Origin: Cupriavidus necator A5-1
Lineage (GTDB): Bacteria > Pseudomonadota > Gammaproteobacteria > Burkholderiales > Burkholderiaceae
NCBI RefSeq assembly: GCF_000744095.1
Contig: NZ_JQLI01000001.1
Coordinates: forward strand, 1,364,001-1,428,000
Direction: 5' to 3'
DNA length: 64,000 bases
The position numbers and the translations under genes are program-made. The first letter of the stretch is position 1, and every line of letters starts with the position of its first letter. This document shows positions 10,871 to 34,264 of the stretch, piece after piece. The notes beneath the pieces were generated by a model, which saw only the letters and a list, made by a program, of their open reading frames with translations, was not told the origin of the DNA and searched no databases.

Positions 10871-11016
10871 CAGGCCGCTGAAGTACTCGCTGCAGACAGG
10901 GCAAAGCTTCCCCCTGCGCGACGCACATGCCTCGTATTTTTCATAATCCGGAAGCCGGGCGTCATTTCATCGATTTTCACGCGGTTTGATGCCCATTTTT
11001 GGCTTCCTTGCTCCCA

Positions 11017-12552: not shown

Positions 12553-13749
12553 TCAAACTGCTGCCACCTCGCCGGCTGAACGTTTTAATCCTGTGGTCTT
12601 GCTGTTTTTCAGAAGCGCTCCCTCGGGTAGGATTCCATGCGTCAGATAGCGCCACAGAGCGATGACCAGCCGTCGCGCCACCGCGACTATAGCGATGCGC
12701 TTGCCCCGCTTGTTCTGGCTATTGCCTTGGGTGCGCTGCACGTACCACTGCGCCATCGCACTGCCGGGCTGATAGCGTAACCAGAGCCACGCCATTTCAA
12801 TAAGCAGAGAACGCACGCGCCGGTTGCCCTGCTTACTGATCCCCTGGTCGACCCGGCTCTGGCCGCTGTCGTACGGCTGCGGCGCCAAGCCGACACAGGC
12901 GCCCACCTGCCGGCGGTTGTCAAAGCTGCGCCAGAACAGCTCGAGCACCAGTCGTGTCGCGCCGACCGGGCCAACCGCCTTGAGCCGTTGCAGGTCGGCA
13001 ATACGCTTTTGTGCGGGTTCCGGCAATTGCCTGACCAGGTCTTTTTCCAGTGCAGCGAGTTGCTGCTGGGCTAAGGCCAAGCGCTGACACTCCCGGGTCA
13101 GCCGCGCATGCAACTGCGCAGGGATTGCCGCGCCGTCGTAGCAGGAGATTTCTCCCTTTGCTAGCCGCTTTGCGATATCGCCTTCGACGTCTTGCCAGCA
13201 ACCCACTGTTCGCAGCAGCTTGCGTATCCGGTCGCGGTGCTGTAGCGTTTCTTTTTGAAGTTCACCCCGGTCGCGCACCAGGTGCCGCTGGGCTTCGGTT
13301 TCAACGGCCGGTACGCGAATCACGTGCATGCGGTCATGTTCGCCGCGCAGCCAGGCGCGCAGGCACAACACCAGCTTGATCGCATCGAGTCGGTCGGTCT
13401 TGGCCCGCCGCGCGTGCCGCTCCACCGGGATGCTGGCGGGGTCGCAGATCACTACTTCGTATCCGAGCTTCGATAGCGCCCGCTCGATCCAGAAGCCGTC
13501 CTGACCAGCCTCGTACAACACGACGGTGCGCACGCCAGGGCCAATTCCCCATTTCGTCTTGATCTTCTCGATCGCTTGCATCGCTTCGTCCAGGCGGCAT
13601 GCCGGAACTTTTGCAGCTACAGTCTGGATCGCAGGCTTCTCCCGTTTGCCGTCGTGCAGGGCGATTTTCCAGGTGTTGTTGGACAGCTCCAGGGCCACTG
13701 CCAATACATCTTCTGCGGGTATAGAATGATTGATACGGGTCGGTTGCAT
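12553..13749 (-). CDS. IS110-family transposase (DEDD RuvC-like plus Transposase_20)
   Basis: About 398 residues. The N-terminal DEDD domain begins with VLAVALELSNNTWKIAL (first Asp replaced in the visible text by Glu in ALELS) and continues with VVLYEAGQDGFWIERAL and RRAKTDRLDAIKLV, the conserved KTDRxDA box. The C-terminal Transposase_20 domain has RLKAVGPVGATRLV and GACVGLAPQPYDSG with the Ser-containing QGISKQGNRRVRSLLIEMAW block. The start at 13749 is preceded by GGAGCACGTC; an earlier in-frame TTG is less likely. IS110 enzymes move DNA with an RNA guide and leave no long inverted repeats, in keeping with the junctions here. Confidence 0.9.
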   Translation of the reverse strand: MQPTRINHSIPAEDVLAVALELSNNTWKIALHDGKREKPAIQTVAAKVPACRLDEAMQAIEKIKTKWGIGPGVRTVVLYEAGQDGFWIERALSKLGYEVVICDPASIPVERHARRAKTDRLDAIKLVLCLRAWLRGEHDRMHVIRVPAVETEAQRHLVRDRGELQKETLQHRDRIRKLLRTVGCWQDVEGDIAKRLAKGEISCYDGAAIPAQLHARLTRECQRLALAQQQLAALEKDLVRQLPEPAQKRIADLQRLKAVGPVGATRLVLELFWRSFDNRRQVGACVGLAPQPYDSGQSRVDQGISKQGNRRVRSLLIEMAWLWLRYQPGSAMAQWYVQRTQGNSQNKRGKRIAIVAVARRLVIALWRYLTHGILPEGALLKNSKTTGLKRSAGEVAAV

Positions 13750-13835
13750 GACGTGCTCCAAGGTGAATGGGTCGCACCTTTACTTTAGGATCGCTTTGCG
13801 TGCGTTACCGACCCGTCTTCATTCATAGGATCTAG

Positions 13836-14315
13836 ACCGATCGAAGCGGGATCAATCTTATGCAACCGGGCCAGCGTCGCGCTCATCGCGTCCATGTACG
13901 CCGCACGGTCATGCCGTGAAATATCGGAAAAGCTGGCATCCCAGAAGATCCGGCCTTCGATCATATCCATGACAAAGAACCAGCTGCCAATCACCGAATC
14001 GTCGGTGCAAAGCCCGTGAATATACGGCACCGGAAAATCCGCTTGACCGAGCGCCGCCATCACGCACGCTTCCCGCTCCACCGCATGGGCGCCCTTCAGC
14101 AAGGCGCCGCGCGGTTTGCGCCGCAGCACATAGCTGCGGCCAGGCGTGGTCAGGCGGTATGTGGGGTTAGACTGCCCGCCCTTGAACTGGTCGATCGTGA
14201 GCGGCCCCGCGTAGCCCGCCACATTCAGTTCCATCCAGCGCTCCAGGGCCGTCTGGTCGAACAGATGCTGCTCGCGCACCGGTACCGTGCCGGCGAAATC
14301 ACGCCTGTTAGTCAT
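13836..14315 (-). pseudogene. APH-type phosphotransferase, N-terminal part, interrupted by insertion
   Basis: The first 160 codons of a kinase of the aminoglycoside-phosphotransferase superfamily: nucleotide-binding start with QFKGGQSNPTYRLTT, the Lys-bearing strand YVLRRKPRGALLKGAHAVEREA, and the hinge GSWFFVMDMIEGRIFWD. The native text stops at ASIGL; the next codons (DPMNEDG...) are contributed by the insertion and end in a stop at 13785. The remainder is at 10250-10867. The ATG at 14315 is the last gene of the minus-strand catabolic operon, 163 bases after the porin stop codon. It is probably non-functional in this strain. Confidence 0.85.
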
Positions 14316-14478
14316 GTTTGTCCTCGGCGTCGAAAGCGTTACGCTTCATCATCTTCGCTAGCGTCCATTTGTTAACTGCGATCGAGCCGTGATAGATTCG
14401 AAGGCATACGGCCGTTCCCGGCCATATGCCTGCACTCAGGATCTACACATCTTGCGTGCCGAGACCAGCGCCCTTATC

Positions 14479-15552
14479 TCAGAACTTGTGCCGAATCCCC
14501 AGCGCAACCCCGGTTTGGTTGGTTTTCCCCGGTGCGAGCGTCTGCAGCGAAGCGAAGTTGAGCGCAGAGTTTTTTGCGTAAGCGGCTACGCCATAGACGT
14601 CGGTGCGCTTGGATAACGAGTAGATTCCCTGCAACACGTACTGTTGCGGATTGGCCGGGTTGGCGACGCCTGCCTTCGACTTGATGTCGTCGTAGTAGTA
14701 GGCGAGCGTCAGCTGGAATGGCGTGGCGATCTGATAGCCGATGCCGGCCCAATACATATTGTCGCGCGACGAGGTAATACCGTTTGCGGCGACGTCCTTG
14801 CCCCAGCGGTAGCCGGCCGAGAGCCGGATCGGTCCCTGCGTGTAGGTGCCGGCCACTGCTGCCTTGCGCGACTTGGCGATGCCGGCGGCGGTATCGGGGC
14901 CATTGCCCTGGTCATAGATCGCCGAGACCGCAAACGGCCCCGACCCGTAGCTGACGCCGCCGCCCCAGGATGCGCTGGCCTGAATCGAGCCAGGCTGTTC
15001 GCCGAAAGCGTAGTGAGCCTGCGCCGTCAGCGCGCCGAGGGCGATGCGGTACTTGACCGAATTATCGACGCGCAAGGGCCCGAGCAGCACCGAGAACGGT
15101 TCGTAGGTCCCCGAGTAGTAGAGCGGCGTAAAGTTGGCCAGAATGTCAAAAAACGTCGTGTATTGCCTGCCAAACGTTAGGCGTCCATAGAGCGATTCCA
15201 TGCCGACAAAGGATTGTCGGTTAAACAAGCGCGAGGTGTCGGCCATCGTACCGGTGTCGATATTGAAGCCGCTCTCCAGCACGAACAGGGCCTTCATGCC
15301 GCCACCCAGATCTTCCACGCCGCGCAAGCCCCAACGCGGGCCGGACAAGCCGGCAGAGGTGAGCTTGACCGCCGACTTGGCGCTGTTATCTCCCGCAATT
15401 GCAGAACGATTGTTGCTGCTGTACTCCAGATAGGTATCGGCCACGCCGTAAATCGTAACACTGGATTGCGCGAATACGACCTGCGCCGACATACCCGTTG
15501 CACCCATCGCCATAACCGATGCCAGAAACCGAACCCGTCCAATCTTGTTCAA
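14479..15552 (-). CDS. Outer-membrane porin (Porin_4/OmpC-like trimeric type)
   Basis: About 357 residues from a TTG at 15552, chosen because AAGGAGGA lies just upstream and the resulting N-terminus is a proper signal peptide (NKIGRVRFLASVMAMG...VVFA, cleavage before QSSVTIYG). The mature protein has the beta-barrel pattern of burkholderial porins: SSVTIYGVADTYLEY first strand, the GPRWGLRGVEDLGGGMKALFVLESGF block, the FGRQYT motif and a C-terminal aromatic (GIRHKF) for BAM recognition. It follows two Bug binding-protein genes in the same direction, so it probably serves as the outer-membrane entry channel for the same substrate. Confidence 0.92.
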   Translation of the reverse strand: MNKIGRVRFLASVMAMGATGMSAQVVFAQSSVTIYGVADTYLEYSSNNRSAIAGDNSAKSAVKLTSAGLSGPRWGLRGVEDLGGGMKALFVLESGFNIDTGTMADTSRLFNRQSFVGMESLYGRLTFGRQYTTFFDILANFTPLYYSGTYEPFSVLLGPLRVDNSVKYRIALGALTAQAHYAFGEQPGSIQASASWGGGVSYGSGPFAVSAIYDQGNGPDTAAGIAKSRKAAVAGTYTQGPIRLSAGYRWGKDVAANGITSSRDNMYWAGIGYQIATPFQLTLAYYYDDIKSKAGVANPANPQQYVLQGIYSLSKRTDVYGVAAYAKNSALNFASLQTLAPGKTNQTGVALGIRHKF

Positions 15553-15670
15553 AACACTCCTCCTTATCGATGTGATGCAGACCCTGCGGGAATTCCCCAT
15601 TTCCCGGCGGCAACTTATTCTTCCTGCTGCCGGCTCATCAGGCAACAAATGGGCCGCCCTTTTCGAAGGC

Positions 15671-16648
15671 TCAGTCCAGCCGAATGTCGGCCGCCTTGAT
15701 CAAGGCGGACCAGCGTGCCTGATCGGCGCGGACATCGGCGGCGAATTCCGGCTGCGGCTTGCCCCCGGGCTCGTAGCCCAGGTCGGCAAATTTCTTGACG
15801 ACGTCCGGATTGCGCGTCACCGCCGAAATCTCGGTCTGCAAGCGCTTGACGACCTCCGGGGGCGTTCCCGCGGGTGCGAAGAAGGCGCCCCAGCCGAGCG
15901 CTTCGAAACCCGGCAAGCGAAGTTCCGACAGCGTGGGGACATCGGGCGTCAGGCGGCTTCGCTTGGTGCCAGAGGAGGCGATGATGCGCACCTTCCCGGA
16001 TGCGACATAGGGACGCACAGACGGATAATCGGTCCACATCGCGGCGACCTCCCCGTTCGCCAGCGCTTGCACCGCGGCACTCCCACCTTTGTAGGGAACG
16101 TGGAGCATGCCGGCACTTAGCGCCTGGTTCAATGCGTGGCCGTACAAGTGCGACGACGAGGCGTTGCCGAACGAGGAGTATTCCCACTTTTTGGTGGTGG
16201 CTTTCGCCTCGCTGGTGAATGCTGCGAAATCGGTGGCCTTTACGCGGCTGGTGCTGACTGCCAGCCACAGCGGCGCGCTAACCAGGGTGGTCACGGGAAC
16301 GAAATCGCGCAGCGGGTCATACGGGATCTTCGGCATCGCGCTGGCAGTCTGCAGCAGGATCGGAATCGTGAACAGTAACGTATAGCCGTCAGGCTGGGCC
16401 TTGGCGACATAGTCGCTGCCGATCACGCCGCTTGCGCCGGGCCGGTTGTCGACCACAATGGCCTGCTTCATATTGACCTGCAGCGCCGAACCGGCGATGC
16501 GCGCGACCACATCGGTACCGCCACCGGCGGGGAACGGCACCACGACCCGCACGGGCTTGTCGGGGTACGACTGGGCCGCAACCGGGCCACACAGCAGAAC
16601 CAGCATCGCCATCAGGGCGCGCCGGCGGGGGAATGAAATCCACGTCAT
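15671..16648 (-). CDS. Bug/TctC-family periplasmic binding protein (second of two)
   Basis: About 325 residues from the ATG at 16648, preceded by GAGGTGATCCA. The N-terminus is a signal peptide (RRRALMAMLVLLCGPVAAQS). The Bug family markers are present: YPDKPVRVVVPFPAGGGTDVVAR near the start, the carboxylate-binding loops VDNRPGASGVIGSDYVAKA and HVPYKGGSAAVQALANGEV, and the C-terminal YEPGGKPQPEFAADVR. Bug proteins bind carboxylates or other small ligands in the periplasm and feed TTT-type transporters or sensors. It is 112 bases downstream of a paralogue. No TctA/TctB membrane partner is nearby. Confidence 0.9.
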   Translation of the reverse strand: MTWISFPRRRALMAMLVLLCGPVAAQSYPDKPVRVVVPFPAGGGTDVVARIAGSALQVNMKQAIVVDNRPGASGVIGSDYVAKAQPDGYTLLFTIPILLQTASAMPKIPYDPLRDFVPVTTLVSAPLWLAVSTSRVKATDFAAFTSEAKATTKKWEYSSFGNASSSHLYGHALNQALSAGMLHVPYKGGSAAVQALANGEVAAMWTDYPSVRPYVASGKVRIIASSGTKRSRLTPDVPTLSELRLPGFEALGWGAFFAPAGTPPEVVKRLQTEISAVTRNPDVVKKFADLGYEPGGKPQPEFAADVRADQARWSALIKAADIRLD

Positions 16649-16760
16649 TGGATCACCTCGACAAATTCGGAAGTAAAAAGGGGGCTCTGCGCGTACGCGC
16701 AGTGGCAAATGTCACAGCATTGTTGCAACTGAACGGCCCTATCGGGCCGGCTGCGGCAGA

Positions 16761-17741
16761 TCAGTCCGGTTGAATCCCGGCCTTTCCAATCAGCTCGGCC
16801 CAGCGCACTTTTTCGGCGCCGACTCCCCTGGCGAACGATTCCTGGGACTGGCCGCCGGGCATGTAGCCGAGGCCGCCGAGGCGTGATACGACATCGGGCT
16901 GATGGAGAACCTTCACTGTCGCCGCGTGCAGCTTGCGGACGATCTCGGGCGAGGTCTTGCTGGGGACGAACAGTCCGGCCCACGTCGGCAGATCGAAGCC
17001 CGGATAGCCTTGCTCAGCCAGCGTCGGCACCTCGGGCGTCAACGGCGACCGCTTGCCGCCAGTGACCGCCAGAAGGCGGATCTTGGCCGATGCCAGTTGC
17101 GGCTTCAGCGTGACGATATCCAGGATCGTGAGTGACACCTCGCCCGCGACCAGCGCCACGCTCGCCGGGGCAGAGCCCTTGTAGGGCACGTGGATCATGT
17201 CTAGCCCGGCCACTGCGTTGAACTGCGAGCCGAGCACATGTGCCGAGGAGCCGTTGCCGAGGGAGGCGAAGCTATGCTTGGCCGGATGCGCCTTGACGTC
17301 CGCCACGAACTCCTTGACGGTGCGCGCCGAGGTCCTCGAGGTACTGACCGCCACCCATAGCGGCGACGTGACCACGTCAACGACCGGCGTCAGGTCGGCG
17401 ATCGGGTCGAATGGCAGCTTCTTGAACAGCGATGGCGTCTGCACCAGCAGCGGCACCGTCAGCAGGATCGTATTGCCATCCGGCGCCGACTTGGCCACCA
17501 CGTCAGTGGCAATCGTGGCGCTGCCCCCCGGCCGGTTTTCGACGATGACGGTCTGGCCCAGCTCGATGGAGAGCTTCTCCGCCAGCAGGCGCCCCAGCAC
17601 ATCGCCTCCTCCGCCGGGCGCGAAGGGGACGACGATCCGCGCCACCGGCTTCGACTGGGCCCACACGGGATTGCCGAGCCAAGCGAGGCACGCGGCCTGA
17701 GCAGCGAACGCGAGGAACGATCGGCGGGTTTTTGTGGACAT
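16761..17741 (-). CDS. Bug/TctC-family periplasmic binding protein (first of two)
   Basis: About 326 residues from the ATG at 17741 (ACAGGAGACAAAGCGT upstream). Signal peptide with a twin-Arg-like start (STKTRRSFLAFAAQAACLAWLG, cleavage after VWA). Ligand loops are those of the Bug family: RIVVPFAPGGGGDVLGRLLA, VENRPGGSATIATDVVAKS, HVPYKGSAPASVALVAGEV and GYMPGGQSQESFAR. Its text differs from the paralogue downstream in the ligand loops, so the two may bind different forms of the substrate. It lies 257 bases downstream of the SDR gene, a gap large enough for an internal promoter. Confidence 0.9.
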   Translation of the reverse strand: MSTKTRRSFLAFAAQAACLAWLGNPVWAQSKPVARIVVPFAPGGGGDVLGRLLAEKLSIELGQTVIVENRPGGSATIATDVVAKSAPDGNTILLTVPLLVQTPSLFKKLPFDPIADLTPVVDVVTSPLWVAVSTSRTSARTVKEFVADVKAHPAKHSFASLGNGSSAHVLGSQFNAVAGLDMIHVPYKGSAPASVALVAGEVSLTILDIVTLKPQLASAKIRLLAVTGGKRSPLTPEVPTLAEQGYPGFDLPTWAGLFVPSKTSPEIVRKLHAATVKVLHQPDVVSRLGGLGYMPGGQSQESFARGVGAEKVRWAELIGKAGIQPD

Positions 17742-17998
17742 ACGCTTTGTCTCCTGTAGACGGCTGTCATGGCCGCCTTTCTTATGGTCCGGCATGGTGG
17801 GACCTGCAGCGCCAGCTTTCCTTCATAGCCGAATTAGAGCGCACAACGCAGGCAGCAAAAAACAGAATCGAAAGAACGGCTCACACTGTGGGATTTCCCT
17901 GGTCGGCGCGGAAAGCATCGGACTTCAAGGGCATTCCGCGCCACCCTGCTCCGCTCGCCCTCAAAATCATGGCGTCGGCGCGGGGCCAGGCGTGGCGT

Positions 17999-18802
17999 TC
18001 ACAGCGGACTCACCAGATGTCCGCCATCCACTGCCAGCGTCGTCCCGGTCATTGCTGCGCCAGCATCCGATGCCAGCAGCAGAAGCGGCCCGTCCAGGTC
18101 AGTCAGCTGACAGAAACGCCGGCTTGGAATGCGCATGCGCAGCTTCTCTCCGGCGTCGCTGCGCAGGAAATCTTCATTCATCTCGGTCATCACGTACCCC
18201 GGCAATAGCGCATTGACCCGGGTCCGGTGCCGCGCCAGTTCGAGCGCCAGTGCCTTGGTCGCCTGGATCACGCCAGCCTTTGAGATGGCATATGGTGCAA
18301 CGCCGGCCGTCACCCTGGCGCCAAGAATCGAGGCGATATTAACAATGCTGCCGCCGCCGGCATTCGTCATGCGCCGCCCGGCTTCGCAGGCGACCAGCCA
18401 GCACCCTTTCAAATTAGTGTCGACCACCGCATCGAAATCCGCCTCGGTCTGCTCTAGCGCCGGCCCGGTCAGCGCGACCCCGGCATTGTTGACGACCACC
18501 TGCGGAGTACCCCACGGTATCGCGTCGAAGCAGGCCTGGATGCTTTTCTCGTCGGTCACATCGAGCGCCAATGCGCACGCCGTTCCGCCCGCCTGCGAGA
18601 TCACTTCGACGATCGGTTGCAGCTTGTCCACGCGACGCGCGGCGAGCGCGACACGCGCGCCGGCCTCCGCCAGCACAGATGCAAAGTGCTTGCCGAGTCC
18701 GCTCGATGCGCCGGTGACCAGCACCACGCGCCCATCCAGCCGGAAGCGCTGCGATGGCGCCACGGCTGCAGCGCTGTGTGTGTCCTGCAATTCACTGTTC
18801 AT
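17999..18802 (-). CDS. SDR-family oxidoreductase (FabG/3-hydroxyacyl-CoA dehydrogenase-like)
   Basis: A 267-residue classical short-chain dehydrogenase. The Rossmann nucleotide site TGASSGLG begins about residue 30, followed by the NNAG motif, the catalytic Ser in INIASILGA-like text and the YAISKAG catalytic Tyr-Lys pair. The C-terminal SDAGAAMTGTTLAVDGGHL is the standard closing. In the operon it follows an enoyl-CoA hydratase and a thiolase, so oxidation of a 3-hydroxyacyl-CoA is the natural guess, which would complete a beta-oxidation cycle. The first 20 residues precede the fold and may be cut by a later start. Confidence 0.88.
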   Translation of the reverse strand: MNSELQDTHSAAAVAPSQRFRLDGRVVLVTGASSGLGKHFASVLAEAGARVALAARRVDKLQPIVEVISQAGGTACALALDVTDEKSIQACFDAIPWGTPQVVVNNAGVALTGPALEQTEADFDAVVDTNLKGCWLVACEAGRRMTNAGGGSIVNIASILGARVTAGVAPYAISKAGVIQATKALALELARHRTRVNALLPGYVMTEMNEDFLRSDAGEKLRMRIPSRRFCQLTDLDGPLLLLASDAGAAMTGTTLAVDGGHLVSPL

Positions 18803-18858
18803 GTTGTCGCCCGACTCTTTTGCCGAGCGGAACAGCAGTCCGCTCGATCCGATTGATG

Positions 18859-19662
18859 TCAGCCAAAGTTAGCCTGCCTCTTCTGTAGCATCGCCGTCAC
18901 GCCTTCGGCGAAGTCCGCGCTCGCGGCACATAGCGCGAAGCTTTCGGCCTCGGCGCGTAGCTGGGCCGTCAGATCGCGCTGGCTGGCATCGAGCAGCAAG
19001 CGCCGCGTCAGCGCCAGGGCGAGCGGCGGGCCGGCCGCCAAGCGACGCGCGATCGCCTCGGCCTCAGCCATCAGCTCCGCCGGTGCCACCACGCGGTTGA
19101 CGAGGCCGGCAGCGCATGCGTCTGGCGCGGAAAGAGGCTCGCACAACAGCGCAAGTTCCAGCGCTCGGCGCAGCCCCACGGCGCGCGGCAGGCGCCAGGT
19201 CGTGCCGCACTCGGGACTCGCCCCGACCAGCGCGGCGGCCACATTGAAACGCGTATCGTCCGCGGCGACGATCAGATCCGCGGCCAGCATCACGCCAATG
19301 GCACCGCCCGCTATCGCGCCGTGCACGGCGGCCACCTTCGGGAATTCGAGGCGCTCCAGCACGGCAAGCGCGCCGTGCATTTCGTCGACGATCTCGGCGG
19401 CGCTGTCAATCGCCGAGGTCATCGCCTGCAGATCGCCGCCGGACAGGAAGGCCCGCCCTTCGCCGCTCAGAATCAGTGCGCGCACATCGGTGGCGGCGGC
19501 GAATTCTTCGCAGGCAAGGCGGAAGGCCCGTGCCAGTGCAAGGTCGACGGCGTTGCGTGCCGCCGGCCGGTTGAAGCGAATATGCGCAAGGCTTCCGTCC
19601 CGCCATGCCAGCACCGGCATCGCGGCGTTCGTATCGGCACGCAGATCAGCAAGCGGCTTCAC
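18859..19662 (-). CDS. Enoyl-CoA hydratase/isomerase family protein
   Basis: A crotonase-fold protein of about 267 residues from a GTG at 19662. The GTG shares four bases (GTGA) with the thiolase stop codon, and GGAGGGG lies upstream, so translation is likely coupled; a much longer upstream frame is an artefact. Crotonase motifs: NRPAARNAVDLAL, the oxyanion-hole loops GEGRAFLSGGDLQ and AIAGGAIGVMLA, and SPECGTTWRLPRAVG with one active-site Glu. Expected reaction: hydration of a 2-enoyl-CoA, or a lyase step such as feruloyl-CoA hydratase. Context with an acyl-CoA ligase and thiolase supports side-chain beta-oxidation. Confidence 0.9.
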   Translation of the reverse strand: MKPLADLRADTNAAMPVLAWRDGSLAHIRFNRPAARNAVDLALARAFRLACEEFAAATDVRALILSGEGRAFLSGGDLQAMTSAIDSAAEIVDEMHGALAVLERLEFPKVAAVHGAIAGGAIGVMLAADLIVAADDTRFNVAAALVGASPECGTTWRLPRAVGLRRALELALLCEPLSAPDACAAGLVNRVVAPAELMAEAEAIARRLAAGPPLALALTRRLLLDASQRDLTAQLRAEAESFALCAASADFAEGVTAMLQKRQANFG

Positions 19663-20900
19663 GCTTGCCCCTCCCTCTCGACCACAAAGCTGGCCACGGT
19701 GGCACACGACCCGCCGATATTCAGTGTCTGAAGCCGTCTTGCGCCTTCGATTTGCGCCTCCCCTGCCCTGCCGGTCACCTGGCGCGCGGCATCCAACAAC
19801 ATGCGTGCGCCGGTGGCGCCCACCGGGTGCCCACATCCGATCAGGCCGCCGCTCATATTGACCGGGCACCGACCGCCCGGTTCGATGCTGCCGTCTTCCA
19901 CGGCTTGCCAGCTTTGCCCCGGCGGCGTCAGGCCGAGGTGATCCAGCGCCACGTACTCGGTAGTGGTGAAGCAATCATGGGTCTCGACCCCGTCGATCGC
20001 CTCAATACCCGTCACATTGGCCCGTCGCCAGGCGTCCTCGATGGCGTGGCGCAGGTGCGGGAATACATAGGCCTGATCACGGCTGCGCTCCAACTTGTCC
20101 CGCAAGCGCAGGCCGGCGGTGCGGTGTCCCCAGCCTGCGATACGCGGCAGCTGGTCGACCGATGTGCCGCGCCGGCGCGCATACTCCTGCGCGAAACGCG
20201 GCGAGGCCAGTACAATGCCGCAGCCGCCGTCGGTCACCTGGCCGCAGTCCTGGCGGCGCGTGCCCGGCTCGATCAGCGGGTTGGCTTCGTCGTTGTCGGT
20301 GAAGCTGTCCGCATTGAACTGCCAGTTGCGGGTCTGCGCCAACGGATTGCGGCGGGCATTGCCGTAGTTGATCTCGGCGATCCGGTTCAGGTATTTACGG
20401 TCCAGGCCGAAGCGGCGCTCATATTCCTGCGCGATGCGCCCGAAAGCCGCAGGCCACATGAAGGTGCAATCGATATCTTCGCGGCCTTGCCACGCGGCGG
20501 AATTCTGATTCTTCGAGGCCTCGTGGCCCGAGATGTTCTTGAACTCCTCGGCGCCCAGCACCAGCACGCAGTCGTAGCGTCCGGCTTCGAGCTCCGCCAT
20601 CGCCGTCAGCACTGCCAGCGACGACGACGCGCAGGCGCCCTCATGGCGCATGGCAGGTATGCCCCACAGTTCAGGCACCACCTGCGCCACCATCGCGCCG
20701 AGGTGCGCCTGCTGGCGTTGCAGCTCACCGAACGCATTGCCGACGTGGATGCTCTCGATCTGCGCTGCATCGAGCGCGCAGGCGTCGAGGGTGCCGAGCG
20801 TGGTGTCGCGGATGATGTCGGAGATGTCCTGTCCGTGGCGGGACCAGACCTTGGCGAAGTCGGTCTGGTAGCCGCCGAGGATATATGCGGATTGGCTCAT
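19659..20900 (-). CDS. Thiolase of the SCPx/lipid-transfer type
   Basis: A 413-residue thiolase-fold protein. The nucleophilic Cys lies at about residue 90 in HEGACASSSLAVLTA; the C-terminal active-site loops are VETHDCFTTTEYVAL and GGLIGCGHPVGATGARM, carrying His and Cys. This arrangement (HDCF rather than NEAFA) is that of SCPx/acetyl-CoA acetyltransferase-like thiolases used in sterol or aromatic side-chain degradation. It starts 21 bases after the second oxygenase gene and overlaps the enoyl-CoA hydratase start by four bases. Probably cleaves a 3-ketoacyl-CoA to a shortened acyl-CoA and acetyl- or propionyl-CoA. Confidence 0.9.
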   Translation of the reverse strand: MSQSAYILGGYQTDFAKVWSRHGQDISDIIRDTTLGTLDACALDAAQIESIHVGNAFGELQRQQAHLGAMVAQVVPELWGIPAMRHEGACASSSLAVLTAMAELEAGRYDCVLVLGAEEFKNISGHEASKNQNSAAWQGREDIDCTFMWPAAFGRIAQEYERRFGLDRKYLNRIAEINYGNARRNPLAQTRNWQFNADSFTDNDEANPLIEPGTRRQDCGQVTDGGCGIVLASPRFAQEYARRRGTSVDQLPRIAGWGHRTAGLRLRDKLERSRDQAYVFPHLRHAIEDAWRRANVTGIEAIDGVETHDCFTTTEYVALDHLGLTPPGQSWQAVEDGSIEPGGRCPVNMSGGLIGCGHPVGATGARMLLDAARQVTGRAGEAQIEGARRLQTLNIGGSCATVASFVVEREGQA

Positions 20901-20921
20901 GTCAATGGCTCGGTTGGGGGT

Positions 20922-22397
20922 TCACAGCAAGCCAGCCCAATCGGACTGGATGTCCCTTGCGTCGGCCCAGCACGCATGCGTGCCGCTGCTGATGCGATGG
21001 GGTAGGAAAATGCGCGCGACCGGCCCTGCGGCGAGTTCGCGGGCGTCCAGCACTAGGCATTCGGAACGGTCGGTGTTCATGTCGGTGACGAAGCTGACCA
21101 CATAGCCATCGTCCTCGCCCTGCGCGTCGTGGCACGGCGCCATCGGCGATTCGCTGCCGAAACGGCCCTCGCCGAACAGGTACTGTTGCGACTCGCCCGT
21201 GGTATGGTCATAGCGTAGGATGCCGTCGAACAGGAACGCTCCGGGGTGCGCAAGCATGTTGTACGAGTAGCGGTACGGCTTGCCCCAGTACTCCATGTTG
21301 ACCATGCCGAATTCGAGATAGCGCTCGTCCAGGCGGCGTTCGCGCGTAGCGCCGGTGCGCAGGTTGAAGCGCCATTCGTAGAGCGTGGGGCCATACCGGT
21401 CCGGCCCCATGGTGTTGCCGGTGTTGTCGTAGCCGGCCTTCGGCATGGGCGTCTTCTGGTGATAGCCGTGCAGCACCACCTCGTCGCCGTCTTCCCACGC
21501 ATTGAGCCAATGCAGCACGTAGGTCGGACTTGCCTCGAACCAGCGGATCTGCGCCAATGCGGCCCTGCGGCGCGGCACGATGGCGAAGCGCGACGGTTTG
21601 TCGGGGTAGTAGCTGAGCTTGTGCTTTCCTTGCAGCAGGAGGTTTTCGTCCCAATGCAGCGGAAAGTCGTTCAGGATGGCGAAATGTTCGGTGAACGCCA
21701 TGTCGTGCGGAAGCCGTGGGCCCGGCAGCGGCACCGGCACGTAGTGCACCAGCCGGTTTTGCCGGTCGACCTCGCCGTAATGCATGTACGGAGCGTCCTT
21801 GCTGTAGTTGAAGAAGAGCAGATCGCCGGTGCAAGGATCGACCTTGGCATGGGCGGAGAGGCCGCAGTCCCGCAACACGTCGGCGCCCCAGGCATCGACC
21901 CCCTCCAATTCCAGGGTACGTGCATCCAACCGGTATGGTTCGCCGCATTGATAGAACATCGCGAGGGCTTTTCCGGCATGGACGATGACGTCGGTCGCGG
22001 CGCTGTCGCGCAGCCCGCCGCGCGCGCCCCAGCCCGGCAGCTCCGACAAGCTCGGCTTGTCGATCAGGCCGGCATACAGCGCCCGCCCGGCTTGTTGCTC
22101 CTGCTGGAACGCCTTGGTGCGGATGAAGCGGTTGCGGTACTCGCAGCGACCGTTTTGAAAGCTCATCAGGTGCAACATCGCGTCGCCATCGAACGGATGG
22201 AACTTGCCGAGCGGCTGGTGCACGGGGTTCTGCGTGTTGCGCAGATAGACGCCATTGAGGCGTGCCGGGATCGTCCCTTCGACCTCCAGGTCAACGGCAT
22301 TGACTTCGCGATAGTTTGGGGTGAACGGCCCCGCAGTGTAGGGATGCCCTTCGAGCGCCAGCGTAGGGTGGATTTCTCCGACGACTTCGACATGCAT
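20922..22397 (-). CDS. Carotenoid-cleavage-type dioxygenase (RPE65/lignostilbene dioxygenase family), copy 1
   Basis: A 491-residue protein of the carotenoid cleavage oxygenase family (seven-bladed propeller with a non-haem Fe held by four His). The likely ligands are all visible: H183 (LSAHAKVD), H231 (LPHDMAFTEH), H296 (VLHWLNAWED) and H474 (SGTHACW). The family's N-terminal GVYLRNTQNP and FHPFDGDAMLH blocks are also present. Enzymes of this family cleave C=C bonds in carotenoids, stilbenes or isoeugenol-type alkenylbenzenes. It lies between the acyl-CoA ligase and the thiolase in one operon and shares only the core motifs with the paralogue at 24195-25637. No signal peptide, so cytosolic. 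Confidence 0.92.
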   Translation of the reverse strand: MHVEVVGEIHPTLALEGHPYTAGPFTPNYREVNAVDLEVEGTIPARLNGVYLRNTQNPVHQPLGKFHPFDGDAMLHLMSFQNGRCEYRNRFIRTKAFQQEQQAGRALYAGLIDKPSLSELPGWGARGGLRDSAATDVIVHAGKALAMFYQCGEPYRLDARTLELEGVDAWGADVLRDCGLSAHAKVDPCTGDLLFFNYSKDAPYMHYGEVDRQNRLVHYVPVPLPGPRLPHDMAFTEHFAILNDFPLHWDENLLLQGKHKLSYYPDKPSRFAIVPRRRAALAQIRWFEASPTYVLHWLNAWEDGDEVVLHGYHQKTPMPKAGYDNTGNTMGPDRYGPTLYEWRFNLRTGATRERRLDERYLEFGMVNMEYWGKPYRYSYNMLAHPGAFLFDGILRYDHTTGESQQYLFGEGRFGSESPMAPCHDAQGEDDGYVVSFVTDMNTDRSECLVLDARELAAGPVARIFLPHRISSGTHACWADARDIQSDWAGLL

Positions 22398-22442
22398 GGT
22401 TGACTCGCTATATGAAATTTGATCGATGCGGGCGATTCAGTG

Positions 22443-24191
22443 CTACCCCTGCACCGCCGTACTCGTGTTCTGACTTACGCTCGCCAGCAACTGGCGCAAC
22501 TCCCGCTTGAGCACCTTGCCGACCGGGTTGCGGGGGAGCTCGGCCATGATCAGCAGTTGCTCCGGCAGCTTGAAGGCTGCGACACCTTCCGCGCGCAAAT
22601 GCGCCACCAGCGCAGGCAACGTGACGGTGGCGTCTGGTTGCGGCACTACTACCGCGCAGACCCGCTCGCCCAGTGTCAGATCGGGGCTGCCGATTACCGC
22701 CACCTCCCGGACATCGGGGTGGCCGAGCAGCAGGTTCTCGACTTCCTCCGACGAAATATTCATGCCACCGCGGATCACGATGTCCTTGTGGCGCCCTGCG
22801 AAGCGATAGAACTGATGACGATTCCCAGCGATTTCGAACAGGTCTCCGGTGCGGTAGTAGCCTTGCTCGTCGAACGCGCACGCCGACAGCTCCGGGGCGT
22901 TAAAATAGCCGCTGAAGATCGCTGGTCCCTGAAAGCGGAGTTCGCCGACGTGGCCCGGCCCATCGATCTCCGCGCCGGTATCGGGATCGACGAGGCGGGT
23001 GCGGATACGCTTTGCATTGGAGTGCGACCAGGTGTAACCGGGTACTCCCATGCGCGGAAAGTACAGCGCGCGCTGGCTGCGGTCGGGGATGTCCTCCGGC
23101 GTCGACGACAGTGCCGCGCCTTCATTCGAGCCGAAGTAATTGACGATTTCGACGTTGAAGCGCTGCGCGAACTGCGCCACCAGCCAGTCCGCCAGCGGGC
23201 CGCCGCCCGAACCGATGCGCTTCAGGCGCTGCAGGTCGACTTCGCTGAGACGTTCCGGCTCCTTGAGCAGCCGGCTCAGCACAGCCGGGGCCGCCACCGT
23301 ATAGTCGATCAGGCTGGTTCGCAACTGCGTAAGGAATACCTCGATGTCGAACGGGTGGTGATGATGCAAGCCGCCGCCGATCAGCAGCCACGCCACGAGG
23401 CTGGTCGAGACTCCCGCCATGTTGACGAAGGGGAAAGGAATCAGGAGCTGGTTGCCGGGCTGCAGGCGGCCGGCCTCCACTACCGACTGACCGACCACCA
23501 GCCACTCATTGTGGTTGCGCGGCACCCCCTTGGAGCGGGCTTCGGTGCCGGAAGTCCAGCAGATGGTGAAGACGTCATGCGCCGTCAGGCCAATCGCCTC
23601 CATGTGCGCGCATAGCGCCGCCGCGTTCCACCCAGTGGTGGCCGCTAGCGCGGCGTCAAGGTCGCCGATAGCAGGTGGCAAGGCTTCGCCCGAATCGTCC
23701 CGATAGGACCAGACTTGCTCCAGCGCGACGCATTGCGTCATGTAGGCGGACCACTGCTCGGCCGCTTGAAAGGAACCGACGCGCTGCGTCGTGATGGCGA
23801 ACCTGGCGCTGGTGGTGCTCAGCACATGGGACAGCTCATGCCCGCGGTACTGCATCGGCACAGGCGACACGATGACGCCGGAGATGGCACAAGCAATGTA
23901 TAGCGCGTGCAGCTCAACGCAATTCGGCAGCTGCAGCACAATGATGTCGTCCTTGCGCAAACCTTGCCGGTGCAGCCAGGCGGTGTAGCGGCCGACTTGC
24001 TCGAGCAGTTCGCCCCACGTCCACTGTTGCGCCGCCTTGCCCCACAGCTCAGACCGGTTAGGTGGGTCGGCGACTGCGAAGGCGGTGGGCTGCCGCACCG
24101 CGGTCTCGACGAACATTGCGCCAAGAGTCCGCTCGCCCCACCATCCGCGCGCGACATAGTCTTCGATTTTGTCCCTGGATACCAAGATCAT
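22443..24191 (-). CDS. AMP-forming acyl-CoA ligase (ANL superfamily)
   Basis: A 582-residue adenylate-forming ligase. Motifs in order: the phosphate loop FTICWTSGTEARSKGVPR (A3, about residue 190), the YFGSNEGAAL region (A5), GYYRTGDLFEI (A7), the hinge FAGRHKDIVIRGGMNIS (A8) and the C-terminal catalytic Lys in PVGKVLKREL (A10). It activates a carboxylic acid to its CoA thioester through an acyl-AMP. Its start lies three bases after the copy-2 oxygenase stop codon, so the two are tightly coupled. Likely substrate: the acid derived from the oxygenase product after aldehyde oxidation, or the imported acid itself; this is inference. No dedicated aldehyde dehydrogenase is in the operon. Confidence 0.92.
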   Translation of the reverse strand: MILVSRDKIEDYVARGWWGERTLGAMFVETAVRQPTAFAVADPPNRSELWGKAAQQWTWGELLEQVGRYTAWLHRQGLRKDDIIVLQLPNCVELHALYIACAISGVIVSPVPMQYRGHELSHVLSTTSARFAITTQRVGSFQAAEQWSAYMTQCVALEQVWSYRDDSGEALPPAIGDLDAALAATTGWNAAALCAHMEAIGLTAHDVFTICWTSGTEARSKGVPRNHNEWLVVGQSVVEAGRLQPGNQLLIPFPFVNMAGVSTSLVAWLLIGGGLHHHHPFDIEVFLTQLRTSLIDYTVAAPAVLSRLLKEPERLSEVDLQRLKRIGSGGGPLADWLVAQFAQRFNVEIVNYFGSNEGAALSSTPEDIPDRSQRALYFPRMGVPGYTWSHSNAKRIRTRLVDPDTGAEIDGPGHVGELRFQGPAIFSGYFNAPELSACAFDEQGYYRTGDLFEIAGNRHQFYRFAGRHKDIVIRGGMNISSEEVENLLLGHPDVREVAVIGSPDLTLGERVCAVVVPQPDATVTLPALVAHLRAEGVAAFKLPEQLLIMAELPRNPVGKVLKRELRQLLASVSQNTSTAVQG

Positions 24192-24194
24192 GAT

Positions 24195-25637
24195 TTACTT
24201 CCAACGATTGAGCGTCGCTTGACTGACAAAGGTGGCGTGAAAACCGTTGGGGACGCGGCGTGGCAAGAGCACGCGCGCAACCGGTCCTTGGGCGAGGTTC
24301 GCGCCCCTGCAATCAAACACCTGAATTTCCGAGCGGGCGTCAACGGGGTTCCAGACAAAGCAGACCAAGTAGCCGTCGTCTTCGGCCATGCTGTTGTCGC
24401 GCGGCGCGAAGCCGGGCTCGTTGTAGAAATGGCGCGGGCCGGCGCTGTATGCGACATAGCCGCCGGTATCGAGGTCATACTTGACCAGCCCCGGGAAGCG
24501 GGGCTTTTCGTGGCCGCCATGCGGAAACACTACGTTGTACGACCAGCGATTCCTGCGCCCCTGGTACATGCTGTTGATGACGGGGAATTCCGTGTTGAGC
24601 ACGTCGTCGATCGGGTTTTCGCGCGTCTCGCCTGTCTTTAGATTGAAGCGCCACTGGTAGAGCAGGAAGTCGCGCTGTCGCAAATGGATGGTCCGCTCCA
24701 GCCTGCGCGCGTCCGGCTGACCGTCGGGGCCTGCGTGGATCCGGTACGGCGTGCCGATCATCACGATCTCGTCGCCTTCTTCCCATGCATTGACAACGTG
24801 CAACATGTACGTTGGCTTGGAGTTGAACCAGCGAATCTCATCTGCGTGGCCATGGCGCGGAATCACTGCAAAGCGCGACGGCTGGCTGACATCGAAGCGC
24901 AGCTTGTAGCGGCCCGCGAGCAACGCCTCGGCATCCGGCCGCAACGGGAAGTCGTGCAAAATGCTGTAGTGCTCGGTGATGGCCATGTCGTGCGGAAGAC
25001 TTGGCGCGTCGAGCGGGATTTCGGTGCGATGCACGACCTTTCGATCCGGTCCGATCACGCCGTATTCCATAAACGGCCGCGTCAAGCCATAGTCGAAGAA
25101 CATCAGCTCGCCGGTGTGCTCGTCCGGTTTGGAATGCGCCGAGATCCGTGTAACGGCCCCGCTGAAATCAGCGGGACCAAAGGTCTGCAGACTGTCGGGA
25201 TCGACCGCGTACGGCATACCAGAGCGATACCACATGGTAATCAGCCGGCCCGCGTGGTACTTCACATCGGTGTTGGAGGTGTTCTTGAGCGGCTCGTCGG
25301 GTCGGTTCGCGCGCAGCGGTTCCTTGAGTCCCTTCCACAGCGCGCGCCCCGCTGCCTTCTCTTCCTGCAGCGCGCTGGTGGCGATCCATCGGTTGCGGTA
25401 GCTCACCTTGCCGTTGCGGAAGCGCACCGCATGCAGCATGCCGTCGCCGTCATAGGCGTGGTAGCGCCAGTCAGGTGGAAAGTAGTTGTTCGGTCCGTTG
25501 CGCACATACAGGCCATTCAGATCCGCCGGCACGCAGCCGATCACGGGCAACTCGTCAAAGGAGTCTTCCCGCTGAATGCCTGCGTTGTTGCCGCTCAGGG
25601 CGGGATTGTCGAGGATGGGCAGGTCGTCGACTTGCAT
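24195..25637 (-). CDS. Carotenoid-cleavage-type dioxygenase (RPE65/lignostilbene dioxygenase family), copy 2
   Basis: A 480-residue protein of the same family as 20922-22397. Four candidate Fe ligands: H168 (RISAHSKPDE), H216 (LPHDMAITEH), H280 (YMLHVVNAWEE) and H467 (GFHATFVS). N-terminal NGLYVRNGPNNYFPP and YDGDGMLHAVRFRNG are the family's standard text. It is closer in style to isoeugenol monooxygenase/lignostilbene dioxygenase-like bacterial enzymes, but the substrate cannot be decided by eye. It is the first gene of the minus-strand operon, 116 bases from the divergent IclR gene (start 25754), which probably controls it. Confidence 0.92.
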   Translation of the reverse strand: MQVDDLPILDNPALSGNNAGIQREDSFDELPVIGCVPADLNGLYVRNGPNNYFPPDWRYHAYDGDGMLHAVRFRNGKVSYRNRWIATSALQEEKAAGRALWKGLKEPLRANRPDEPLKNTSNTDVKYHAGRLITMWYRSGMPYAVDPDSLQTFGPADFSGAVTRISAHSKPDEHTGELMFFDYGLTRPFMEYGVIGPDRKVVHRTEIPLDAPSLPHDMAITEHYSILHDFPLRPDAEALLAGRYKLRFDVSQPSRFAVIPRHGHADEIRWFNSKPTYMLHVVNAWEEGDEIVMIGTPYRIHAGPDGQPDARRLERTIHLRQRDFLLYQWRFNLKTGETRENPIDDVLNTEFPVINSMYQGRRNRWSYNVVFPHGGHEKPRFPGLVKYDLDTGGYVAYSAGPRHFYNEPGFAPRDNSMAEDDGYLVCFVWNPVDARSEIQVFDCRGANLAQGPVARVLLPRRVPNGFHATFVSQATLNRWK

Positions 25638-25726
25638 ATGAGTGCCTCCGTTGCGCGGTGAAGATCAATGGCGCCAGTCTAGGGAGGGACCTCAAGGAAC
25701 GCCCAAGTATTTTTGATATACTGATC

Positions 25727-25751
25727 GTTGTTTCGATATGTCATAAACAAC
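25727..25751. promoter_or_regulatory. Inverted repeat in the IclR/oxygenase divergent promoter
   Basis: Perfect 7-bp arms GTTGTTT (25727-25733) and AAACAAC (25745-25751) separated by 11 bases, ending two bases before the iclR-type start codon at 25754. The position fits an autoregulatory operator that could also act on the divergent catabolic operon starting at 25637. An AT-rich stretch (TATTTTTGATATACTGAT, about 25709-25726) just beside it could hold a promoter -10 element. Confidence 0.5.
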
Positions 25752-25753
25752 TC

Positions 25754-26542
25754 ATGTCCGTCCCGCGCCGCGTACCGCTCGACCTCCTCGAATACGAGGG
25801 CGACCGCCAGTTCGCCACGACGTTGGCGCGCGGGATCGCTCTTTTGCGCTGCTTTACGCCGGAGGAGCCGGTTTTGGGTAACAAGGAACTCTCGCGCCGA
25901 TTGGAGTTGCCGGTGGCGACCATTTCGCGCTTGACCTATACGCTGGTGGCGATGGGCTATCTGGCACAGGACGAGCCCCACGGCAAATACCGGCTCGGAA
26001 GTGCGGTGCTCTCGCTGAGCTACCCGCTGCTGGAATTGTTCACGATCCGCCGGCGCGCACGACCCTACCTGCTCGAACTTGCCGAAAGCACGGGGGGCTC
26101 GGTGTCGATCGGTATCCGAGACCGCCTCAGCGTCGTCTATATCGAGGCAATCCGCTCGCACCACCACAAGGTCTATCCGCTGGATGTGGGGACGCGGCAG
26201 TCTCTCGCCGGGACCGCGATCGGGCGAGCCTACCTGATGTCATGCGCGCCATCAGAGCGCGAGGCCTTGATGAACCAGTTGCGGGTCCGCGCGCCGGAGG
26301 AGTGGCAGCGGCACCAGGCGGAGTTACGCCGCAACATGGCCGAGTATTCGCGCTGGGGGGCCTGCGTGTCGGTTGGCGAAATCTTTCCCGATGTGCAGGC
26401 GGTGGCCGTGCCACTCGGCCGGATTGATCGCGGAGAGCCTGCGGCGCTTAACTGCGCGTTCCAGGGACGTCCACTGAACCGATCCTGGCTGCTGGAAGAG
26501 ATCGGGCCAAAATTGCAAGCCTTGGCCCGACAGCTGATGTGA
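25754..26542 (+). CDS. IclR-family transcriptional regulator
   Basis: A 262-residue protein from the ATG at 25754; a longer upstream frame runs through the divergent gene and is an artefact. Residues 20-85 form the IclR winged helix-turn-helix (FATTLARGIALLRCFTPEEP, LSRRLELPVATISRLTYTLVAMGYL). The C-terminal effector domain contains GGSVSIGIRDRLSVVYIEAIRS and the family's late GEIFPDVQAVAVPLGR block. Such regulators govern aromatic and acid catabolism (PobR/PcaR/KdgR class). It is divergent from the oxygenase operon and the likely regulator of it. Confidence 0.93.
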   Translation: MSVPRRVPLDLLEYEGDRQFATTLARGIALLRCFTPEEPVLGNKELSRRLELPVATISRLTYTLVAMGYLAQDEPHGKYRLGSAVLSLSYPLLELFTIRRRARPYLLELAESTGGSVSIGIRDRLSVVYIEAIRSHHHKVYPLDVGTRQSLAGTAIGRAYLMSCAPSEREALMNQLRVRAPEEWQRHQAELRRNMAEYSRWGACVSVGEIFPDVQAVAVPLGRIDRGEPAALNCAFQGRPLNRSWLLEEIGPKLQALARQLM

Positions 26543-26579
26543 TACCAGGCGGGGCCAACCGCGCCTTGCCGCGCAAAGT

Positions 26580-27359
26580 CTATTGTTCCTCGCCGTGCCA
26601 CCCGAACGGGCTGACTTCTCGTATCAGCAACTCGCCCAGTTCCGCGCGACGCTTCGCCGGCATCCTCGAGTTGATCGCCGCGATACTAATCCCTGCATAG
26701 CTGTTGCGGGTGAGCGCGAACGCGCATCCTACACCACTCATTTCGACATGTGGATCCGCCGACTCCGAGTAACCGAGCTTTCGTGCGCGTGCGATCAGCT
26801 GGCGCAGCTGGCTTGCGCTGATACCGAGCCGGCTGTACTCCTTGCCATTTCTTGCGAGCATTTGTGCAATCTCTTCATCGGGCAGCATCGCCATGATTGA
26901 TGCACCCACTGCGCTGGTGGCGAGCAGTCGCCGAACGCCGACCTGCACGATGAAGGCCTTGACCGGATAATCGCCTTCCTCTCGGCACAGGCACACGGCG
27001 AAATCGCCGCTGCGCACGAGCAGGAATACCGTGTCACCGGTCTGGCGAGCCAGCCGCTGCATCACCGGGCGAAAACGATCGCTTACGCTAGACAGCCCAG
27101 CGGACGAGAACCCCCATTGCAGAGCTTCGATCCCGAGCCGGTAGAGCTTAGTGGTGCCGATGCGCTCGACGAAGCCCTCTTCGATCAGACACGTCAGCAG
27201 ACGATGGGTGGTCGAGCGATCAAGCCCTGACACCGCGATCAGATCGCGGAGCCGGATGCCGGAGCCATGGTTGGCGCCGACATGCCGCAGCAGCGACAGG
27301 GCTCTGGCGGCACTTTGCGTGCCGGCCACGGGGGCCAAAGCAGTCTTTTTCTCATCCAT
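26580..27359 (-). CDS. IclR-family transcriptional regulator
   Basis: About 259 residues from the ATG at 27359 (MDEKKTALAP); an earlier in-frame ATG at 27449 adds non-conserved text. Helix-turn-helix at residues 15-75 (SAARALSLLRHVGANHGSGI, GLDRSTTHRLLTCLIEEGFV), effector domain thereafter (GDTVFLLVRSGDFAVCLCRE, ATSAVGASIMAMLPDEE, ISIAAINSRMPAKRRAEL). It converges on the first IclR gene and is divergent from the alpha/beta hydrolase at 27536, so the hydrolase cluster is its probable target. Confidence 0.92.
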   Translation of the reverse strand: MDEKKTALAPVAGTQSAARALSLLRHVGANHGSGIRLRDLIAVSGLDRSTTHRLLTCLIEEGFVERIGTTKLYRLGIEALQWGFSSAGLSSVSDRFRPVMQRLARQTGDTVFLLVRSGDFAVCLCREEGDYPVKAFIVQVGVRRLLATSAVGASIMAMLPDEEIAQMLARNGKEYSRLGISASQLRQLIARARKLGYSESADPHVEMSGVGCAFALTRNSYAGISIAAINSRMPAKRRAELGELLIREVSPFGWHGEEQ

Positions 27360-34260: not shown

Positions 34261-34264
34261 TTCG

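What the first reader, a model, noticed from the sequence alone, without database searches (positions are those of the whole stretch)
14479..26542. Candidate undescribed catabolic system: two carotenoid-cleavage-type oxygenases with CoA ligase, beta-oxidation set, two Bug proteins and a porin under an IclR regulator
On one strand and closely spaced (3 bases, 45, 21, a 4-base overlap, 56, 257, 112, 118) lie oxygenase, ligase, oxygenase, thiolase, hydratase, SDR, two periplasmic binding proteins and a porin, then a kinase. Family knowledge: such oxygenases cleave C=C bonds of stilbenes, isoeugenol-type alkenes or carotenoids. The rest fits uptake of an acid followed by CoA activation and side-chain shortening. 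I know of no described operon with this composition. The substrate is inference.
Basis: partly seen in the sequence, partly recalled or inferred. Interest (0 to 1): 0.75.

Follow-up and report, generated by a model that had tools for sequence, protein, structure and literature searches.

The report
Oxygenase operon for polyene-acid breakdown
A Cupriavidus gene cluster combines two oxygenase-family proteins from a distinct, widely spread branch of the carotenoid-cleavage family with members of acid-activating and chain-shortening enzyme families; it is predicted to let the bacterium feed on a still unidentified, likely polyene-type acid.

Summary
In detail: nine intact same-strand genes with the stated spacing plus a kinase fragment, two of the genes carotenoid-cleavage oxygenases (CCOs). 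Four other Cupriavidus records carry the same set, one of them plasmid pBB1 of C. necator N-1. The core (CCO, CoA ligase, SCP2-type thiolase) recurs in several phyla. New here: both CCOs belong to one clade (71 of 71 tips, support 0.997) that keeps the four iron histidines but lacks one of three second-sphere carboxylates and carries a one-residue insertion. In a PF03055 sample, 14 of 24 CCOs of this clade have the ligase family nearby, against 0 of 79 ordinary ones; genomes with the thiolase nearly coincide with genomes with the clade (5 shared, 1 and 1 alone, of 349; 5 shared, 0 and 1 alone, of 299). The stilbene-binding Tyr/Lys pair is absent, which disfavours lignostilbene or isoeugenol; a methyl-branched polyene or enone (apocarotenoid-like) acid is inferred, untested. 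The kinase gene, ACAD11-like, is broken by a 2,962-bp insert. A divergent IclR/hydrolase/SnoaL/SDR unit extends the locus to 29915. Ten paper searches found no description.

The parts
24195..25637 (-). CCO1, class-B carotenoid-cleavage-type oxygenase, first gene of the operon (480 aa)
   Evidence: PF03055 394.8 bits; His168, 216, 280, 467, Glu350 and Glu407 invariant in 36 aligned proteins; Trp136-Tyr137-Arg138 in place of the usual x-Glu; AlphaFold pLDDT 91.1, family fold
22443..24191 (-). LIG, AMP-forming acid-CoA ligase (582 aa)
   Evidence: PF00501 177.5 bits and PF13193; none of the 25 NCBIfam models shown is over its cut-off; same family in 57 of the 85 clustered loci
20922..22397 (-). 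CCO2, second class-B oxygenase (491 aa)
   Evidence: PF03055 402.5 bits; four His kept, motif Phe-Tyr-Gln
19659..20900 (-). THL, SCP2-type thiolase (413 aa)
   Evidence: NF004936/PRK06289 595.8 bits, cut-off 375; motifs HEGACAS 86, HDCFT 308, GCGHPVG 355 (their SCP2-type meaning is recalled)
18859..19662 (-). ECH, enoyl-CoA hydratase/isomerase family (267 aa, GTG start, overlaps THL by 4 bases)
   Evidence: PF00378 161 bits; the 25 NCBIfam models shown are all below cut-off
17999..18802 (-). SDR, short-chain dehydrogenase (267 aa)
   Evidence: PF13561 180.9 bits; TGASSGLG and YAISK motifs
16761..17741 (-). Bug2, periplasmic binding protein (TctC family)
   Evidence: PF03401 225.7 bits
15671..16648 (-). 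Bug1, periplasmic binding protein (TctC family)
   Evidence: PF03401 200.3 bits (scanned with two extra codons)
14479..15552 (-). outer-membrane porin (TTG start)
   Evidence: PF13609 158.3 bits (scanned with four extra codons)
13785..14315 (-). N-terminal part of an ACAD11-type kinase gene (APH family), interrupted
   Evidence: PF01636 74.9 bits over profile 2-118; alignment with pBB1 stops at 13833
10871..13832 (.). insert carrying IS110-family and DUF772/IS5-type transposases inside the kinase gene
   Evidence: alignment with three relatives breaks at 10870 and 13833/13834; transposase Pfam hits
10292..10870 (-). C-terminal remainder of the kinase gene, in two frames
   Evidence: PF01636 profile 128-223; two pieces
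25754..26542 (+). IclR1, divergent IclR regulator
   Evidence: PF09339 and PF01614; nearest NCBIfam PcaR/PcaU/PobR 113.7 bits, below its cut-off 284.75
26580..27359 (-). IclR2, second IclR regulator
   Evidence: PF09339 and PF01614; near the operon in L025, L026, L086, L087, L089, L090
27482..28243 (+). ABH, alpha/beta hydrolase, distantly PcaD-like
   Evidence: PF00561 50.8 bits; PcaD model 85.4 bits, cut-off 255.85; an ABH-family hit follows the ligase in 22 loci
28454..28864 (+). SnoaL/LEH-fold protein
   Evidence: PF07858 43 bits, cut-off 24
28920..29915 (+). SDR2, second short-chain dehydrogenase
   Evidence: PF00106 76.3 bits; beside the thiolase end of the operon in L019, L025, L026

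Best explanation
This conserved gene cluster is predicted to be a catabolic operon for a conjugated, likely methyl-branched polyene or enone acid (apocarotenoid-like), which its ligase would activate with CoA, its two class-B oxygenases would cut at C=C bonds, and its thiolase, hydratase and SDR would shorten. Shown by calls: gene order, conservation, the oxygenase clade and its missing carboxylate, co-occurrence with the ligase and thiolase, absence of the stilbene-binding Tyr/Lys. Inferred: co-transcription, uptake through porin and Bug proteins (no membrane partner is in the operon), binding of iron, C=C cleavage, the order ligase before oxygenase, the isoprenoid nature of the substrate, control by IclR1/IclR2, and a 4-hydroxyacyl-CoA step through the ACAD11-type kinase whose gene at this locus is broken in this strain.
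For: The gene set from CCO1 to porin, with the kinase, is present in C. numazuensis, Burkholderiaceae bacterium 16, C. necator N-1 pBB1 and C. necator C39. CCO1 at 93% or more identity in 5 of 398 genomes of the family search, own included. Ligase next downstream in 27 of 31 testable loci at 60% identity or more. Class B is one clade, 71 of 71 tips, 1 Fitch change, motif columns masked. Class B versus class A ORFs with the ligase family nearby: 14 of 24 versus 0 of 79; per locus without the query genomes, any of ligase/NMO/thiolase 6 of 13 versus 1 of 75, p = 2e-5. Thiolase NF004936 and class B occur in the same genomes: 5 both, 1 and 1 alone among 349; 5 both, 0 and 1 alone among 299; none of the other 32 and 31 genomes with a PF03055 match has the thiolase. 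SCP2-type thiolases favour alpha-methyl-branched 3-oxoacyl-CoA (recalled), and an NMO/FabK-family protein joins the module in 30 of 85 loci, which fits an enone or branched acid. Kinase: 398 bits to 3dxp, 248 to ACAD11.
Against: No substrate, product or expression was measured. Nine of 24 class-B ORFs in the sample have neither ligase, thiolase nor NMO nearby (9 of 17 in the independent part). The window operon itself lacks NMO, PaaN-like dehydrogenase and ACAD; the nearest NMO homologs lie elsewhere (49% and 46% to the L013 protein). IclR1 and ABH are distantly like beta-ketoadipate-pathway proteins, which leans toward aromatic acids. The residue I place at the occluding site is Thr, as in the stilbenoid clade and others. 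The broken kinase may mean that the pathway is decaying in this strain.
Confidence: 0.5

Rival explanations
1. The operon degrades an aromatic alkenoic acid or stilbenoid acid: the oxygenases cut the C=C beside an aromatic ring, as lignostilbene dioxygenases do, and the CoA enzymes handle the rest.
Against: The Tyr101 and Lys134 positions (LsdA numbering recalled) are Leu/Ile/Val and Tyr/Ser in nearly all class-B proteins (1 Tyr in 110 at the first); 249 and 234 bits against a cut-off of 800 for LigStilDioxAlpha; a thiolase is not needed to process simple stilbene products (inference).
Confidence: 0.25
2. The oxygenases are no longer C=C dioxygenases: the class-B change in the iron surroundings gives another activity (isomerase, hydratase, monooxygenase) within a beta-oxidation-like pathway.
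For: 108 of 109 class-B proteins have no acidic residue at the aligned second-sphere position, all 109 with a one-residue insertion; RPE65 shows that the fold can do non-oxidative chemistry (recalled).
Against: All four His and the other two Glu (109 and 108 of 109) and the Thr are kept; the fold prediction is ordinary.
Confidence: 0.15
3. Abscisic acid catabolism: the acid would be activated, its C2 unit removed by the thiolase set, and the remaining side chain cut by the oxygenases.
For: ABA is a carotenoid-derived, methyl-branched dienoic acid; Rhodococcus sp. P1Y shortens its side chain by enzymes not yet identified (PMC9599779, passages and discussion section read).
Against: No gene link of any kind was found here; ABA would not obviously suit freshwater Limnohabitans or Bacillota (inference).
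Confidence: 0.07

Closest known systems
Plant carotenoid 9,10-dioxygenase CCD1 and VP14 (solved structures)
   Different: Only 31-35% identity in the structure alignments; lack of the second-sphere Glu that both references carry; bacterial cluster with CoA enzymes
Lignostilbene dioxygenases LsdA, LSD4, NOV1
   Different: No Tyr101/Lys134 pair, no second-sphere Glu at that site (LsdA checked), scores far below the NCBI models
Second-type CCO clusters on C. necator NH9 pENH92, C. basilensis pRK1-2 and Sphingopyxis granuli pRW412b
   Same: Glu-less CCO with ligase, NMO, thiolase, hydrolase, SDR, aldehyde dehydrogenase
   Different: Other regulators (HxlR/HTH), MFS or TonB uptake, FadA-type thiolase; no NF004936-like match to THL in G228, G257, G318; motif Met-Ser-Gln in the two Cupriavidus, Phe-Ser-Arg in Sphingopyxis
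Levulinate (lva) pathway of Pseudomonas putida (recalled)
   Same: APH-family kinase, SDR and CoA ligase
   Different: No oxygenase there; the window operon has no ACAD partner
Genomic island MmGI-1 of Mycobacterium massiliense (PMC4263727, passages)
   Same: Only paper found whose text holds 'carotenoid oxygenase', 'thiolase' and 'operon' together; lipid-type genes
   Different: Mce transport, other gene set, no assigned substrate; not compared by sequence

Membership tests
Carotenoid cleavage oxygenases (PF03055) | Pfam model over cut-off | tested here: met
   402.5 and 394.8 bits, cut-off 27
Carotenoid cleavage oxygenases (PF03055) | four iron-binding His | tested here: met
   110 of 110 aligned proteins, both window proteins included
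Carotenoid cleavage oxygenases (PF03055) | three second-sphere carboxylates on three of the His (PMC12051055, passages) | tested here: not met
   two kept (Glu350, Glu407); the third is Arg in CCO1 and Gln in CCO2, non-acidic in 108 of 109 (by alignment, not coordinates). So: member of the superfamily, but a deviating clade
Carotenoid cleavage oxygenases (PF03055) | oxidative C=C cleavage | not testable with these tools
   needs assay
Lignostilbene / stilbenoid-cleaving dioxygenases | NCBIfam equivalog cut-off | tested here: not met
   NF053778 249.4 and 234.4 versus 800; NF053780 206.5 and 181.4 versus 650
Lignostilbene / stilbenoid-cleaving dioxygenases | Tyr and Lys that hold the 4-hydroxyl (LsdA numbering recalled) | tested here: not met
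   Leu and Tyr in CCO1, Leu and Tyr in CCO2 in the multiple alignment
Lignostilbene / stilbenoid-cleaving dioxygenases | Thr at the occluding site (PMC12051055; column assigned by me) | tested here: met
   Thr in 109 of 109 and in 24 of 24; not specific, also Thr in 67 of 79 class-A proteins
8'-apo-carotenoid 13,14-cleaving dioxygenase (NF052295) | NCBIfam equivalog cut-off | tested here: not met
   238.1 (CCO2) and 227.7 (CCO1) versus 675
SCP2-type thiolase, PRK06289 family (NF004936) | curated cut-off | tested here: met
   595.8 versus 375
ACAD10/11-type acyl-CoA kinase | sequence kinship to the ACAD11 kinase domain | tested here: met
   intact pBB1 homolog: 247.9 bits to 8v3v residues 6-347; the window copy is broken
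ACAD10/11-type acyl-CoA kinase | phosphorylation of 4-hydroxyacyl-CoA | not testable with these tools
   function of ACAD11 recalled
PcaR/PcaU/PobR regulators | TIGR02431 cut-off | tested here: not met
   113.7 versus 284.75

The most novel reading that the evidence does not exclude
Class-B carotenoid-cleavage oxygenases are a separate functional branch that cuts C=C bonds in CoA-bound acyl chains, using an iron site with only two second-sphere carboxylates and a Trp/Phe-Tyr element where stilbene enzymes hold their substrate; the operon is one form of an undescribed pathway for apocarotenoid-like acids spread across several bacterial phyla.
Probability: 0.25. Interest if true: 0.82.

Novelty: new variant of a known kind. 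Interest (0 to 1): 0.62.

Why it matters
The bacterial carotenoid-cleavage oxygenases with known roles that I can name (lignostilbene dioxygenases, apocarotenoid oxygenases; recalled) work outside CoA chemistry. A clade tied to a CoA ligase and a thiolase in distant phyla points to a whole catabolic route that my searches did not find described, possibly a missing route for carotenoid breakdown products in soil and fresh water. It also offers a natural test of what one second-sphere glutamate of these iron enzymes does, since on the tree made here it was dropped once while the rest of the site was kept.

Tried and rejected

Rows dropped before counts: 5 of 112 related CCO cluster members by length (421-559 aa kept); two ambiguous ORFs (L228, L229), and for the independent count also L191, L197 (a neighbour 100% identical to a query protein) and L277-L283 (chosen from the family search); I did not fetch the fragments in G523, G823, G786, nor one match in G864 (C1:858315), so genomes counted as having PF03055 without class B include G523, G823, G786 and G662, whose CCO was not classified. 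The tree used 45 randomly drawn of 107 related proteins, labelled class B by cluster. The thiolase search scored at most 5 candidates a genome. The neighbour queries were drawn from class-B loci, so remoter ligases near class-A genes would be missed. My own gene caller is rough and can miss or merge genes.
Full report
What is there. IclR1 is divergent at 25754-26542; beyond it lie IclR2 and, on the plus strand, an alpha/beta hydrolase, a SnoaL/LEH-fold protein and a second SDR, to 29915. Consensus promoter and terminator counts in the region are near the shuffled means, so they say nothing about the transcript. The window lies on a 4.69-Mb contig of a 9.74-Mb genome in the same genus as the held genomes of C. 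numazuensis and C. necator N-1 (places match).

The kinase. Compared with pBB1, C. numazuensis and C. necator C39, the kinase gene is split by a 2,962-bp insert at 10871-13832 with two transposase genes, and its C-terminal part is in two frames. In the three relatives an uninterrupted 353-aa kinase follows the porin. The pBB1 protein matches 3dxp (398 bits) and the kinase half of ACAD11 (248 bits) best. ACAD11's role in 4-hydroxyacyl-CoA breakdown is recalled. The own genome has uninterrupted homologs elsewhere at 54% and 47%.

Conservation. A scan of genome contigs with CCO1 gave 78 loci, the best 80 of 335 relatives kept. Two carry the operon from CCO1 to porin at 93-98% protein identity; pBB1 and the C39 plasmid match 95% of window 13000-30000 at 98.4% and 95.0%. 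In the 32 loci of the 60-85% band the ligase is next downstream in 25 of 29 testable, the thiolase is somewhere in 20, a second same-strand CCO in 19, and IclR1 is the divergent neighbour in 21 of 31. The exceptions for the ligase are L007, L032, L033 and L035. In the 44 loci of the 40-60% band the ligase is next downstream in 11 of 41, somewhere in 24, the thiolase in 19, and IclR1 is the neighbour in 0 of 42. By record title these include Bacillota, Actinomycetota, Chloroflexota and Gammaproteobacteria; two Saprospiraceae loci have the thiolase but no ligase. Recurrent partners among 85 clustered loci are an NMO/FabK-family protein (30 loci), a second thiolase (27), an HxlR regulator (19), a PaaN-like dehydrogenase (13; 522 bits against a cut-off of 579 for the one scanned) and a lipocalin-like protein (11). 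In the family-level search 26 of 398 genomes have a CCO1 match at 1e-60, and 5 of 398, own included, have it at 93% or more: the operon is accessory.

A distinct oxygenase clade. Aligned with LsdA, 5v2d, CCD1 and VP14, CCO1 and CCO2 have one extra residue just before the usual second-sphere Glu, and no Glu: Trp-Tyr-Arg and Phe-Tyr-Gln. In 109 related proteins position 136 is Trp, Phe, Met or Tyr, 137 is Tyr (104) or Ser (5), and 138 is non-acidic in 108. A Glu or Asp is found at position 141 in 44 of 109, so partial compensation cannot be excluded. The equivalence rests on sequence alignment, not on coordinates. CCDs in general have three second-sphere carboxylates (PMC12051055, passages read). 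The genome's third CCO has the usual Glu. To sample without choosing by CCO1 I took the PF03055 matches in 349 genomes of the order and 299 of the phylum (38 and 37 genomes with a match), fetched about 8 kb on each side where the contig allowed, added seven loci from the family search, and classified 105 ORFs: 79 with Glu, 24 without, 2 ambiguous. The ligase family is near 14 of 24 Glu-less and 0 of 79 Glu ORFs; NMO near 15 of 24 and 1 of 79; SCP2-type thiolase near 7 of 24 and 0 of 79. Leaving out loci shared with the query set and the family loci, any of the three is near 8 of 17 against 1 of 75 ORFs, or by locus 6 of 13 against 1 of 75 (p = 2e-5). So about half of the independent class-B genes lack these neighbours. 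With the motif columns masked, all 71 Glu-less tips of a 154-protein tree form one clade (support 0.997).

The thiolase from the other side. The NF004936 thiolase is over its cut-off in 6 of 349 and 5 of 299 genomes. It shares 5 genomes with class B in each sample; one genome has only the thiolase (G527) and one only class B (G659) in the first, one only class B (G822) in the second. None of the other 32 and 31 genomes with a PF03055 match has it (one genome is in both samples, and four of these genomes have no classified CCO). Fisher p without the own genome is 4e-8 and 1.6e-8; kinship of the genomes is not corrected for.

Novelty. Ten full-text searches returned no description of such an operon; most papers were seen only as listings, three were read in passages or one section; subscription journals and preprints are not covered. 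I rate it a new variant of a known kind: known protein superfamily, a clade and an operon type for which I found no report.

Noticed in passing
window 10871-13832: 2,962-bp insert with IS110-family and DUF772/IS5-type transposases inside the kinase gene; uninterrupted relatives exist in three other Cupriavidus records.
   Followed up: yes
window 8655-9905, 39213-39875, 40283-41779, 50907-52685: Further mobile genes: ISL3-type transposase and, by eye, a group II intron-type reverse transcriptase and two more transposases.
   Followed up: no
window 41944-54000: Block with acyl-CoA synthetase, aldehyde dehydrogenase, CoA-transferase, ACAD and iron alcohol dehydrogenase, 95-96.5% identical to segments of five Cupriavidus plasmids.
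   Followed up: no
window 30000-39077: Continues the match to C. necator N-1 pBB1 at 98.1%, so a pBB1-like stretch of about 25 kb sits on a 4.69-Mb contig here.
   Followed up: partly
L091, L092, L093: A second type of Glu-less CCO cluster on C. necator NH9, C. basilensis and Sphingopyxis granuli plasmids, with NMO, ligase, hydrolase, MFS or TonB uptake and aldehyde dehydrogenase.
   Followed up: partly
L026: A contig named Pantoea sp. 18069 carries the Burkholderiales-type operon; contamination or transfer was not tested.
   Followed up: no
Caulobacter vibrioides control genome: Rings for both PF03055 and NF004936; a model organism that may carry the pathway.
   Followed up: no
G000:C1:4165114-4166463: Third CCO of the genome, ordinary class A, with no ligase, thiolase or NMO hit in the fetched flanks.
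   Followed up: yes
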